In this document: positions 6,922 to 12,054 of the stretch, piece after piece
Layout: each line of letters starts with the position of its first letter
Position numbering within the stretch: the first letter of the stretch is position 1
Assembly: GCA_023078555.1 (NCBI GenBank)
Contig: CM041200.1
Location: 3,651,921-3,715,920, forward strand
Length of the DNA stretch: 64,000 nucleotides
From: Ulva prolifera
Lineage: Eukaryota > Chlorophyta > Ulvophyceae > Ulvales > Ulvaceae
Direction: 5' to 3'
Program-made: the position numbers and the translations under genes
The notes under the pieces: model-generated
Databases searched by the model: none
What the model saw: the letters and a program-made list of their open reading frames with translations, nothing else
Told to the model about the DNA's origin: nothing

Positions 6922-8275
6922 CGCGCGAGGCTGTGAAGTTGGGACTGGCGTGGCTGCGCCCGGCTCAGGTCCTGTGGTGGTGTCACGTCCCGCCTCAAGG
7001 GCTGTTCAACCTGCAGCATATAAACGTGGGTGCGTCTTCGACACACCAGGAGGAACTTGTGTAACAGGAGGCGTGCAGGGTCTGCTAGCTGTGCTGCGGA
7101 TTAGGGTACGCAGGGAAGGAGAGGCCGTCGGTATGTTGGATTTGTGCTGCAGAGAAGGTGTACGACTTCTGCAGCTAGCTACACGTGGAGGTCCCCTGAA
7201 GGGATTTTGCAGGTTCCCAGCTCATGGTTTCATCATGCTGGCACACCCGAGTCGAGCTTGTCCGGCGTAGGGACATGCATCAGCTGAGCCTGGTAGGACT
7301 ATAAGGATGACGCTGCCGCATTTCGTTCGTTCGACGGCGCTCGACACAAGTCAAAATGCACATAGATCATGCCTCCTGTTCTGTGGTTTGTTCACCTGAT
7401 CACCCACGAAGTTGCGTACTTGCTCTCTATGCTTGCAGTGCTGGGCGTTTATTGTACCCATGTATGAAGCAGGCTCTGTGTGCTTGATAGGCCACCATGT
7501 ACATGCTTCGGGTCACATATAACAAGCATACCGGTTGAATGCAAGATTGTTCTAGTTCGGTCCTGTCATGTTGCCGCTCCATACCACATGATATTGCACA
7601 CAGATAGCACAATGCTCCAAGAGCGTGATGACCGCAACTACGTGCACCGCACCGCACCCACACAGCCTGAGTGGATCACGAAAGATACACCACAGCTTGA
7701 GACCTCCGGCGGAAGGAGAGTGTGCACTGCATGAGCTTGCAACATGGCTATCAAAGCGTCCGCAATACCGGTGAGCAGTGTGGGCTATTCCCGGGAACGT
7801 GGATGAGCGCACGCCGATGGCGTGCTCCGCTCCATCTGGATCGTGACGCCGTTCGCTCAGAAGCACTGTCAACACTGAAGCACGTATTGTCGAGGAGTAA
7901 TGGCAGCTGTATCGATCACGGGTTCGTGCAGAATGTGGCAGTGTGGCTACTGTCTTCGTTCAGCGCTCAGACCTGCTGTTCTCTGCTGTCGTTACATGGA
8001 ACTGTGCAGGTTCGACAGTCCAGTCTAGACCTCCTGCGCGTGCACAGCGAAGGTGTGGTACGATAGGTAGTTGTGAATATATACTGCTTGCAACGTCGAA
8101 CTCCGAATGGCACATCTGAAGACACGGAACATTCAGGAAGATACCCGGGTAACGACCGCTACGGCCAACACAGGGTACATCACAGCATCTGCAGAGGTAA
8201 GGTACACGAGAGGCCCCAACAAAGTGAGCAGCAGAAGCTCTTGCGTATTTGTTTCGGAACTTTGCAGTGTGCTAC

Positions 8276-9352
8276 ATGTTGGCTTTGACGACACGCGCAG
8301 AGCCTCTAATCATGAAGGGTATCAGGCGGACGACCAGCATATGCACGAACGCCGCTGTGGCGACTCCAAGTAGGCAATGTAGGCGCCACAATCTTATACT
8401 TTTAGATCAGCATAGTCGGTGCATACGCGCACGCTGCGTTGCAGGCTCGACGGCCAGCGTCGAGCCCGCAGAGATCGACAACCCAGTTCCACAGAGCGAC
8501 GTTTGGGAACTCGACTTTTGCTCCCGTCCAATGCTGGACGTGCGGGGAAAGAAAGTATGGGAGCTTCTCATCACGGAACCATCAGGGAGGTGGGTTTATG
8601 CTAAGTATTTCCCTAACAACAAGATCAACAGCACAGAGCTCAAGGCTGCACTGAAGGAAGTCCTGGCTGAGAGAGGGGCACAAAAACCAAGCAGGGTGCT
8701 GTTCTTCCGAGGCCAGATGACAACCATCATCTCCAGGGCCTTGACGGATATGGACATCAAGGCAGTGCCAAGCCGGCGCTGCTTCACTCTGTTGAATCTC
8801 CTCGAGAAGCGCCTGGAGACCGTTTACAAGGAAGACGAGAGGTATTCCGAGAAAGCAGGCACAATGTTCCAACTCGATCTGGCACCTCCAGAGGACATTT
8901 CAGATGCACTACGCGGAGAGCAATGGGCATTTGTTCAACTGCCGTTGTCTGCCCTGATGGAAGAGATAGCTCCTGTGCAGCAACAGGAGTGCTTTGGGGC
9001 TGTTGTTCCAAATATTGAAGATCTGGGGCTGTCGCCGGACACTAATGTGCCAGGTGTTGCGGTGTTCAGCAAGCGGGCAATCCCGCTTGCAGCATGGACT
9101 AATGGTCTTGAAATTGCATGCATGAAAGCAGACACAGATCGATGCTGCTTGTTGCTCGAGGCAGGGGTCAGGGAGAGGTACCGGTACGGAGCTTGGCGTA
9201 GAACACCAGAGGCAACCACTGAAGCCAAAAGTTGGGAACAAGCTAAAGAAGGGAGCAAGGGGCTGCACTTCCTTGCAGTTCAAACTGGTCCTGATGCATC
9301 CGCTTGCTCAGGGCTTTGGGTAATGCAGGAAACAGGTTCTCCAGCAGTATAG
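8276..9352 (+). CDS. TAB2: Tab2/ATAB2-like plastid RNA-binding translation factor
   Basis: A single long exon, unusual here. Tab2 proteins occur only in cyanobacteria, algae and plants. In Chlamydomonas Tab2 is needed for translation of psaB (photosystem I), and the Arabidopsis protein also acts on photosystem II mRNAs. Diagnostic blocks in order are VWELDFCSRPMLD, GKKVWELLI, YFPNNKIN, RVLFFRGQM, KAVPSRRCFTLL, RLETVY, GEQWAFVQLP, GVAVFSKRAIPLAAW, RERYRYGAW and GLHFLAVQ. They cover the whole family length, so the gene looks complete. The frame is open further upstream, but the first ATG is 8276; a second at 8312 (MKGIRRTTS) is also a reasonable start. The first 65 or so residues are basic and Ser/Thr/Ala-rich, as expected for a plastid transit peptide. 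A TGTAA follows at 9397-9401. Confidence 0.95.
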   Translation: MLALTTRAEPLIMKGIRRTTSICTNAAVATPSRQCRRHNLILLDQHSRCIRARCVAGSTASVEPAEIDNPVPQSDVWELDFCSRPMLDVRGKKVWELLITEPSGRWVYAKYFPNNKINSTELKAALKEVLAERGAQKPSRVLFFRGQMTTIISRALTDMDIKAVPSRRCFTLLNLLEKRLETVYKEDERYSEKAGTMFQLDLAPPEDISDALRGEQWAFVQLPLSALMEEIAPVQQQECFGAVVPNIEDLGLSPDTNVPGVAVFSKRAIPLAAWTNGLEIACMKADTDRCCLLLEAGVRERYRYGAWRRTPEATTEAKSWEQAKEGSKGLHFLAVQTGPDASACSGLWVMQETGSPAV

Positions 9353-9799
9353 CAGACGGGTCAGTGCTCAATGTGCTAGTAAGTGTTGTGTGACATTGTA
9401 ATCCAGTGGCAAGGTGATCAGCGCATTTACCCACCAGTTCATCTGCGCACTGAGGAGTACTGCGACTGCTCCGGTGCTCGTGCATCAAATAGGGTAATAT
9501 AGTTCTGTTACTGTTGCCTGGTGACCATGCTCCAATTGTGGCATGCCATGATGTTCACAAGCGTCAGTTAACCAAACTTGTGCTCTCTTTGGCGTGACAT
9601 GTCTCGGCTGCTGTAGTGGCTGAAAGGGTTCTGGTCGTGACGAGATCCCGAATCAGTCTCGCGTGTTGAAGCGTTCCTGTCGATTCGCGCGATGATACTC
9701 GAATTTTTGTCCCAGGAGACACATGATCAATTGCCACAAGCCAGTGTTCACTTCTGCCTCCGTCGACTTCGATTCTCCCGCTCCTAAGTACATGTTCAC
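9353..9799. other. intergenic; probable promoter of the REX1 pair
   Basis: It holds the TAB2 poly(A) signal and then about 400 bases in which I see no coding exon or motif. It should include the promoter for the two REX1 reading frames. Confidence 0.4.
9397..9401 (+). other. TGTAA poly(A) signal after TAB2
   Basis: TGTAA 45 bases downstream of the TAB2 stop codon. Confidence 0.5.
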
Positions 9800-10242
9800 A
9801 TGGCACAGCTTCTCAGAGGGGTTCTGATTGAAAGGTGCCTGATCAATTTGGTCTCAGCCGCAACTTTGGTGAACATCACGGTCAAATCTCGCCACATTTC
9901 TGTTGTGCAGTGATATTCCGACGATAGCTTACATCACCTGGCTTGACGAGAAGCAGCCGCCAGGGTGTGATCACGGCATTATGGCTGCAATTTCGATGTT
10001 TTGCCATAGTATCAGAGGTGTTGTATGAAAGGCTGTTGATGGCGCGACTTTGCTCATGGGTGTCTACATGTGTCCTCGCCAATTGAATCAAGCCCGGTTT
10101 TTGCAGCAACAAGATCATCATCGAGCATTTGAGCGACAAACAAATTTTCATATACCAAGGAAAAGAGGACATGGTCCGGGAGCAAGTGAGGAAGTGGCAA
10201 CGATCCAACACCTACGAGAGTGCACAATTTGTACAGGCTTGA
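9800..10242 (+). CDS. TFB5: TFB5/GTF2H5 (TTDA) subunit of TFIIH; orthologue of algal REX1-S
   Basis: Three exons (9800-9834, 9911-9964, 10107-10242) join in phase to 74 residues, the normal size of this tiny TFIIH subunit. It stabilises TFIIH and stimulates the p52/XPB part during nucleotide excision repair. The order of blocks follows the family: MAQLLRGVLIE, then SDIPTIAYITWLDE, then NKIIIEHLSDKQIFI, then EDMVREQVRKWQRSNTYE. The usual Cys-Asp before the Pro is Ser-Asp here. Introns are 76 and 142 bases with GTGCCT and GTGTGA donors. In Chlamydomonas the REX1 locus encodes this protein (REX1-S) together with REX1-B. The same partner starts 43 bases downstream here, with no TGTAA between them. 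The gene is too short and too split to be found by simple open-frame searching. Confidence 0.85.
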
Positions 10243-10285
10243 TCAATCACAGTTCCGTTCGGACGTGTACATTAAGTGAAGAAGA

Positions 10286-11058
10286 ATGGCAATCAGCTCA
10301 GTGGGAGAGGCTGTACATGAAGTTCTGAGGGCCCAGACTCGAAGGGCTCACCTGTATGCAGCGTTTCAAACAGGTCAGTGTGGACCATGTGCATAAGATG
10401 TGATTCCACAAAACTGTCCCGTTCAGCACCACATCGCCAAGCTTGATTGTGTATGCAGCATTCCGGGAAATGTGCGCTACGAAGAACGAAGGGATGTACC
10501 TGAAGCTGCTGCCGCAGCTGACTGACGAATTTCGAACTGTTTCCGAAGTTGTTATAGCATGTGAGGAATTCTTGCTCAGTGAGGGGAAATCTGACCTTGC
10601 GAAGACTATCAGGCTAATTCAAGAGCAGGAGCGCGTAAAGCTGCAGGCCACTGTCAGCTTGCAAGCTCTCCAAAAAGCGCAGGCATTTGATACCTTGCCG
10701 TGGCAAAACGGCAGTGAAGCCGCATGGAGCGAACCAGATTCCATTTCATCCTCAGGTAAGGTTCATGCAGTGTGACTTGCTGTTGCTGATCATTCTTGCG
10801 CACTGCGAAAATCCAGCTTGGCTTGTCCTCAGAGCTGACACGTTTCTACTTGCTGCAGGACAGCCTGCCCATAGCGTACACAGTTGCTGCCACCAGCACA
10901 GCGGCGGACGCTCTGTCACAGATCCGTCACACATCACAGAACAGGAGTGGCATGGCGCTTGTTCAGAAGCTACAGCTGCGCTCGAGCATGCTGTAACTTG
11001 TATCAATGATGCGCTGGAGGAGATACGTTATGAAGAAGCAGAAGATGGCCTCATGTAG
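10286..11058 (+). CDS. REX1-B: REX1-B (Required for excision 1-B domain) DNA-repair protein
   Basis: Three exons (10286-10373, 10459-10755, 10859-11058) give 194 residues in phase. REX1-B was found in Chlamydomonas as one of two products of a locus needed for excision repair; the human homologue is REX1BD. The N-terminus AVHEVLRAQTRRAHLYAAF, the central helical part VSEVVIACEEFLLSEGKSDL followed by IRLIQEQERVKLQATVSL, and the C-terminal CINDALEEIRYEEAED are the family's conserved stretches. It is predicted all-helical. The ATG lies 43 bases after the stop of TFB5/REX1-S, and the intervening DNA has no poly(A) signal, so both may sit on one transcript. A TGTAA lies at 11210-11214. The biochemical role of the protein is not known. 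Confidence 0.85.
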
Positions 11059-12054
11059 TCGTCGGATTCAATAACTTGTAGACTGCGACAAACTGTGTTG
11101 CAGCCATTAGTGCCTGCTGAGCGCAGGATTGCTGGTGATGGCGGCGCTGCATCACTGTTAATTTGGGTGCTGTTTCAACACTAAGCATCTGGCTTGACCA
11201 AAAACCCCTTGTAATCGACTGTGCACCATTGCAGAGCAGCTGCATTGTTTTTAGGAGACCAGATGCTCCAGGATAAGAGGCTATGGAACCAATGGCCCTT
11301 TGCCCTGCGATGCTGGCACACCGGCAGAGTGCCTAGATGCTGACGCTATGCAGCACCATCTTACATTACGACCCAGCAGTTTCGGACGTGGTCTTCTTGG
11401 ACATTTGATGTACGGATCATAGATTCAGTAAAAGGCAAAGACGTCGAAGGCGTCAGTCGCCTGCCTTGAACTGTGTGTGTACATGCAATCCAGATGTCCA
11501 GGTAGCTGTCAGTGCACACATGAAATTTGTTAAAAAACAAACTTCAAGAGAGGAAAAAACAAATGACATGATCATTGGGGCCCGTGCCGTTTGTGTGGGC
11601 AGACCTGGTGTCTGCTCACACCAGCATCGGTTGGTCACTGCCCCTGGTACACTAGGCAGCATGGCCTTTCACGGACACATTGTATTCCGTGCACAACACG
11701 CAGTCATCCTGAGGCCATGAATGGCAGAGAATGATCACTGTGCCTTTTGCGGGCAGTCCAGGACGGATCGTGCAGTCTGCTACAGCGTTCAACATTCTTG
11801 TGCACTTGCATGAGTGGAACACAGACTTACACAGACTTCGCTGCATCTAGACAAAGCAGTTCAACCGACATCCATGCACAATAACTGACTTTGTGTTGCC
11901 AAAGAGTCGCGGAATCCTTCAAAGGTACTCGAATTTACTGTCGCAGAAGGCCGGTACCTGTGACATGGTCACCGCAACGTCGCGCTGATGCGGTATCAAG
12001 CTTACCAGCAGCACGTTCCATGAGGCCGTACACAAGTGCCGGCCCTGTTTTGGT
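11059..12054. other. intergenic, no supported gene
   Basis: Nothing recognisable apart from the REX1-B poly(A) signal at 11210. Short frames at 11466-11720 (+) and 11652-11846 (-) have no motifs. Confidence 0.4.
11210..11214 (+). other. TGTAA poly(A) signal after REX1-B
   Basis: TGTAA 152 bases after the REX1-B stop; the first such word downstream of either REX1 reading frame. Confidence 0.4.

What the first reader, a model, noticed from the sequence alone, without database searches (positions are those of the whole stretch)
9800..11058. TFB5/REX1-S and REX1-B in tandem with a 43-base gap: a probable dicistronic repair gene
Hand splicing yields a full 74-residue TFB5 ending at 10242 and a full 194-residue REX1-B starting at 10286, with no TGTAA between them and one downstream at 11210. 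In Chlamydomonas the REX1 locus is known to encode the same two proteins. Finding the same order at 43 bases here suggests that a two-protein mRNA is an old, conserved device linking a TFIIH subunit to a poorly understood repair factor. The shared transcript itself is inferred.
Basis: partly seen in the sequence, partly recalled or inferred. Interest (0 to 1): 0.75.

Follow-up and report, generated by a model that had tools for sequence, protein, structure and literature searches.

The report
Green-alga TFB5–REX1-B two-protein gene
Two small genes, one for a part of the TFIIH transcription and repair machine and one for a poorly understood protein called REX1-B, sit 43 bases apart in a green-alga genome and are very probably read from one messenger RNA, as is already published for the same pair in other green algae.

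Summary
TFB5 (74 aa; exons 9800-9834, 9911-9964, 10107-10242) and REX1-B (194 aa; exons 10286-10373, 10459-10755, 10859-11058) lie in tandem on +, 43 bases from stop to start. Both pass their Pfam cut-offs; each family gives one match in the 88.9-Mb genome, here. A database protein from a 1,015-base contig equals the spliced TFB5. REX1-B's last exon is inferred.

This alga's only named REX1-B hit is an Ulva protein. A second published pair, CDC26-TTM3, is also colinear and close here. Start contexts suit leaky scanning, with one obstacle, a strong in-frame AUG at TFB5 codon 52. No transcript spanning both ORFs was seen, and no REX1-B protein from a 1,015-base contig appeared, a mild point against. 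Calling REX1-B a repair factor is shaky: human REX1BD was linked to the proteasome lid (PMC12222714).

The parts
9800..9834 (+). TFB5 / REX1-S exon 1
   Evidence: protein equals P0007
9911..9964 (+). TFB5 exon 2
10107..10242 (+). TFB5 exon 3 with TGA stop
   Evidence: PF06331 exon match G000:C5:3662025-3662141
10171..10173 (+). in-frame internal ATG, TFB5 codon 52, context GAGGACATGG
10243..10285 (+). 43-base inter-ORF, no ATG, no TGTAA
10286..10373 (+). REX1-B exon 1; start context AGAAGAATGG
10459..10755 (+). REX1-B exon 2, most of the PF14966 domain
10859..11058 (+). REX1-B exon 3 with TAG stop; acceptor inferred only
   Evidence: alternative 134-aa end with intron 2 retained
11210..11214 (+). 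TGTAA, candidate poly(A) signal of the unit (that TGTAA is the green-algal signal is recalled)
   Evidence: chance of one or more in 160 bases about 9%
9792..9827 (+). possible 11-codon upstream ORF overlapping the TFB5 start; matters only if the mRNA begins upstream of it
8228..9352 (+). upstream neighbour: stop-to-stop frame with Tab2-like domains; TGTAA at 9397 follows; a separate unit by inference
   Evidence: PF20429 and PF06485

Best explanation
A conserved green-algal bicistronic nuclear gene, the REX1S-REX1B locus. One capped mRNA starts between the Tab2-like gene and 9800 and ends near 11210. Ribosomes that start at 9800 make TFB5; that start has a weak context (C at -3). Some ribosomes miss it, scan through an ORF1 and a gap without any out-of-frame AUG, and start REX1-B at 10286 in a strong context (A at -3, G at +4). 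Shown: gene anatomy, one match per family in the genome, spacing. Supported: TFB5 splicing, by an identical database protein. Inferred from print on the same pair: the shared mRNA and leaky scanning at this locus.
For: Anatomy and 43-nt gap. Pfam matches. One match per family in the genome, both here. The same pair is called bicistronic in C. reinhardtii and A. protothecoides; the A. protothecoides set came from Iso-Seq and nine loci, not listed in the text read, are bicistronic in both algae; median inter-ORF there 40 nt against 2,518 nt between monocistronic colinear genes. TFB5 (225 nt) has 0 out-of-frame ATG and the gap none; REX1-B (585 nt) has 10. Start contexts weak, then strong. CDC26 and TTM3, another published pair, are colinear and close in the same genome.
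Against: No transcript spanning both ORFs was seen. The 1,015-nt contig that gives TFB5 gave no REX1-B protein in two searches (candidates of about 107-340 aa, about 51-161 aa), although TFB5 start to REX1-B stop is only 853 nt when spliced. ATG depletion in TFB5 is not significant: P 0.11 by synonymous resampling, P 0.23 by within-gene codon permutation. Joint with CDC26 P is 0.034, but that test was made after seeing CDC26 and rests on exons I chose. The in-frame AUG at codon 52 has a strong context and should stop many leaky ribosomes.
Confidence: 0.85

Rival explanations
1. One mRNA, but REX1-B is reached by reinitiation: ribosomes that skip 9800 start at the strong in-frame AUG of codon 52, translate 23 codons, stop at 10242 and reinitiate 43 nt on; or they translate the overlapping upstream ORF 9792-9827 and reinitiate.
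For: The codon-52 AUG has G at -3 and G at +4 and 23 codons remain to the stop. The ATG at 9792 ends inside TFB5. PMC11892635 says that the effect of an added inter-ORF AUG fits either leaky scanning or reinitiation (passage).
Against: 43 nt is short for reinitiation in other eukaryotes (recalled). The published Kozak-strength experiments in A. protothecoides favour leaky scanning (abstract and passages). Whether 9792 is in the mRNA is unknown.
Confidence: 0.2
2. Two independent genes with overlapping transcripts: TFB5 has its own 3' end inside REX1-B, and REX1-B its own promoter inside TFB5.
For: A TFB5 protein is known from a 1,015-nt contig and no REX1-B protein from a contig of that length was found. 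A TFB5 intron could hold promoter elements (inference).
Against: 43 nt leaves no room for separate UTRs without overlap. The pair is bicistronic in two distant green algae. No TGTAA in the gap, though that alone is weak.
Confidence: 0.1
3. The order is a leftover of chance adjacency without function.
For: No functional data from this alga.
Against: Chance spacing about 2.4e-7; same pair in distant green algae in print.
Confidence: 0.03

Closest known systems
REX1S-REX1B bicistronic locus of Chlamydomonas reinhardtii and Auxenochlorella protothecoides (UTEX250_A11.30960 / 30955)
   Same: Same two proteins by name, same order by the locus name, short inter-ORF (PMC11892635 passages)
   Different: Gap 43 nt here, 14 nt in A. 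protothecoides; another alga, whose only named REX1-B hit is Ulvmu1, read as Ulva mutabilis; transcript not shown here; strong in-frame AUG at codon 52 here, not compared with theirs
CDC26-TTM3 bicistron (described in land plants, then C. reinhardtii)
   Same: Same class; the two genes are colinear and close in this genome
   Different: Other proteins, other locus (L003, G000:C5 about 5.47 Mb); last CDC26 exon and 14-nt gap there are my splicing
TFIIH subunit 5 (GTF2H5 / p8 / TTD-A; yeast Tfb5)
   Same: Residues 1-67 match 1-67 of chain 28jm_G, 71 residues, E 3.1e-6 (human by recall)
   Different: Whether that gene is ever bicistronic outside algae was not tested
Fission yeast Rex1BD, C4H3.06 (PDB 8j0h)

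Membership tests
TFB5 / REX1-S | PF06331 match over cut-off along the whole protein | tested here: met
   59.3 bits, cut-off 23.5, profile 1-66 of 67 (P0007, identical to the spliced window protein)
REX1-B | PF14966 match over cut-off | tested here: met
   77.7 bits, cut-off 24, profile 2-93 of 94
green-algal bicistronic locus | Two separate complete ORFs, colinear, short inter-ORF | tested here: met
   43 nt; published medians 183 and 40 nt
green-algal bicistronic locus | Ortholog pair bicistronic in another chlorophyte | not testable with these tools
   Other algal genomes are not held; in print REX1S-REX1B is bicistronic in two, orthology to them not computed
green-algal bicistronic locus | Mature mRNA carries both ORFs, exclusively | tested here: inconclusive
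   No RNA reads on hand; a 1,015-nt contig gives TFB5, and no REX1-B protein from it appeared
green-algal bicistronic locus | Weak ORF1 start context, stronger ORF2 context | tested here: met
   C at -3 against A at -3, both G at +4; judged by the general Kozak rule quoted, no consensus computed for this alga
green-algal bicistronic locus | AUG depletion before ORF2 | tested here: inconclusive
   0 out-of-frame in TFB5 but P 0.11 and 0.23 by two nulls; one strong in-frame AUG; upstream ATGs lie at 9723 and 9792
green-algal bicistronic locus | Both ORFs translated | not testable with these tools
   Needs ribosome profiling or proteomics

The most novel reading that the evidence does not exclude
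In this alga REX1-B is not reached by simple leaky scanning but through the codon-52 AUG: a 23-codon internal mini-ORF in the TFB5 frame ends 43 nt upstream and feeds REX1-B by reinitiation, so that TFB5, its C-terminal fragment and REX1-B are set by one ladder of AUGs, tying a TFIIH subunit to a protein whose human counterpart was placed with the proteasome lid.
Probability: 0.12. Interest if true: 0.5.

Novelty: new member of a known kind. Interest (0 to 1): 0.25.

Why it matters
It adds to a published ancient bicistron an alga whose only named REX1-B hit is an Ulva protein; no ulvophyte is among the species named in the section of PMC11892635 that lists them (their classes partly recalled). 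A second published pair is also colinear and close in this genome, so the device is probably general there. The strong internal AUG is a test case for how ribosomes reach the second ORF. And the label 'repair' for REX1-B may be wrong.

Full report
What is there. On the + strand the DNA encodes, by GT-AG splicing, a 74-residue protein from exons 9800-9834, 9911-9964 and 10107-10242, then 43 bases, then a 194-residue protein from exons 10286-10373, 10459-10755 and 10859-11058. The first matches Pfam Tfb5 along its length (59.3 bits, cut-off 23.5) and the solved TFIIH subunit 5 over residues 1-67 (E 3.1e-6). The second matches DNA_repr_REX1B (77.7 bits, cut-off 24) and the solved fission yeast Rex1BD chain 8j0h (E 5.1e-5; title). 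Each family gives one match in the genome of 88,887,114 bases, both here; the search goes exon by exon and scored 3 and 1 candidates, so a divergent second copy could be missed.

How sure is the splicing. P0007, a database protein from a 1,015-base contig, equals the spliced TFB5 over all 74 residues. The genomic introns are 76 and 142 bases, so that contig is cDNA or an intronless copy (inference; no intronless copy was found in this genome). For REX1-B, the Ulva protein P0001 reads AAFQTAFREMC across the first junction as here, while P0002-P0005 have other residues before AAFREMC, as the unspliced window frame does, and look genomic. P0002-P0006 have a Gly close to our exon 2 end and then diverge (by eye), which fits the donor. 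The second acceptor is inferred; a 134-residue form with intron 2 retained is possible.

Is the spacing meaningful. A given start codon falls within 43 bases downstream on the same strand by chance with probability about 2.4e-7. The Tab2-like frame upstream ends at 9352, has TGTAA 45 bases on at 9397, and lies 447 bases before TFB5; the TFB5-REX1-B gap has none. A TGTAA also lies at 10992 inside REX1-B exon 3.

Is it known. Yes. Of PMC11892635 (PNAS 2025) I saw the outline with abstract, passages and sections 5, 6, 7 and 8; of its preprint PMC11291117, passages. They say that REX1S-REX1B, experimentally analysed in C. reinhardtii, produces a bicistronic mRNA (citing the 2003 paper, not held), and use the 14-nt inter-ORF of the A. 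protothecoides locus in a reporter. They report nine loci bicistronic in both algae (not listed in the text read), small ORF1, short inter-ORFs (medians 183 and 40 nt), weak ORF1 start contexts and AUG depletion before ORF2. The species named in section 5 include no ulvophyte. A search with Ulva, bicistronic, polycistronic, nuclear and green algae (25 papers hold at least four of the five terms, 10 listed) showed no title on nuclear bicistrons of Ulva among the 10; the other 15 were not seen. One listed paper, PMC2075485, reports a conserved upstream-ORF peptide group reaching Ulva ESTs (passages), a related matter but not this pair.

Does this genome use the device elsewhere. I tested one other published pair, CDC26-TTM3 (named). 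The CDC26 family search failed; the CYTH search gave two places. Beside one, L003, on the same strand, lies a frame whose hand-spliced product passes the CDC26 cut-off (29.1 bits, cut-off 24.5, residues 1-34 of 58). By my splicing its stop lies 14 bases before the TTM3 start; the last CDC26 exon is not covered by the Pfam match, and the safe statement is that CDC26 exon 1 ends 306 bases before the TTM3 start that I chose. So one of one further pair tested is colinear and close.

How it probably works. The TFB5 start has C at -3; the REX1-B start has A at -3 and G at +4. TFB5 holds no out-of-frame ATG, with 1.7 expected by synonymous resampling (P 0.11) and 1.1 by within-gene codon permutation (P 0.23); TFB5 plus gap holds one ATG beyond the start, with 6.1 expected from the window's ATG density, which is not codon-aware; REX1-B has 10 out-of-frame, 7.7 expected. 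TFB5 and CDC26 together hold none where 2.6 are expected (P 0.034, tested after seeing both and resting on my CDC26 exons). This fits leaky scanning but does not prove it. Against the simple version, the in-frame AUG at codon 52 has G at -3 and G at +4 and opens a 23-codon stretch ending 43 bases before REX1-B; leaky ribosomes must pass it or reinitiate after it. ATGs also lie upstream at 9723 and 9792, both with ORFs ending at 9827 inside TFB5; whether they are transcribed is unknown.

Result against. If the 1,015-base contig behind P0007 were a spliced bicistronic transcript, a REX1-B protein should probably have been predicted from it, since TFB5 start to REX1-B stop is 853 nt. Neither search showed one from a contig of that length: (6 proteins of 167 candidates) nor (6 of 6). 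In one search, P0008 (98% identical, 2,127-base contig) and P0009 (100% over 55% of the query, no source given, as for a protein that the window itself encodes) both end in the intron 2 frame, so they look genomic. The contig cannot be read with the tools here; assembly or gene calling could explain the absence. I count it mildly against.

What REX1-B does. The name says DNA repair. Extracts of a rex1 strain have lower excision repair (PMC4192114 passages), which loss of TFB5 alone could explain (inference). In human cells REX1BD was placed with the 19S proteasome lid (PSMD13, PSMD14, PSMD7) by integrated proteomics and an AlphaFold3 model (PMC12222714 passage). A model of the Ulva relative is three long helices (mean pLDDT 69) and its fold matches are not specific.

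Verdict. A real, correctly read and conserved bicistron-type locus: a new member of a known kind in an ulvophyte-like genome. Transcript and translation are inferred from the published relatives.

Noticed in passing
L003 (G000:C5:5469423-5473058, minus strand): CDC26 exon 1 at L003 2655-2602, TTM3 start at 2295: CDC26 and TTM3 colinear and close (14 bases apart by my splicing), the pair known as a bicistron in land plants and C. reinhardtii.
   Followed up: yes
window 10171-10173: Strong in-frame AUG inside TFB5 (codon 52) upstream of REX1-B, an obstacle to simple leaky scanning.
   Followed up: partly
window 8228-9352: Tab2/Atab2-like frame (PF20429 E 2e-44, PF06485 E 5.1e-31) directly upstream on the same strand.
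   Followed up: no
window 10756-10858: If intron 2 of REX1-B is retained the protein has 134 residues, the same length as the Ulva protein P0001.
   Followed up: partly
L004 (G000:C6:4972701-4976027, minus strand): Second CYTH place in the genome; frames beside it include a GASGSGKST P-loop, which looks like a kinase fused to CYTH (TTM1/2 type, recalled).
   Followed up: no
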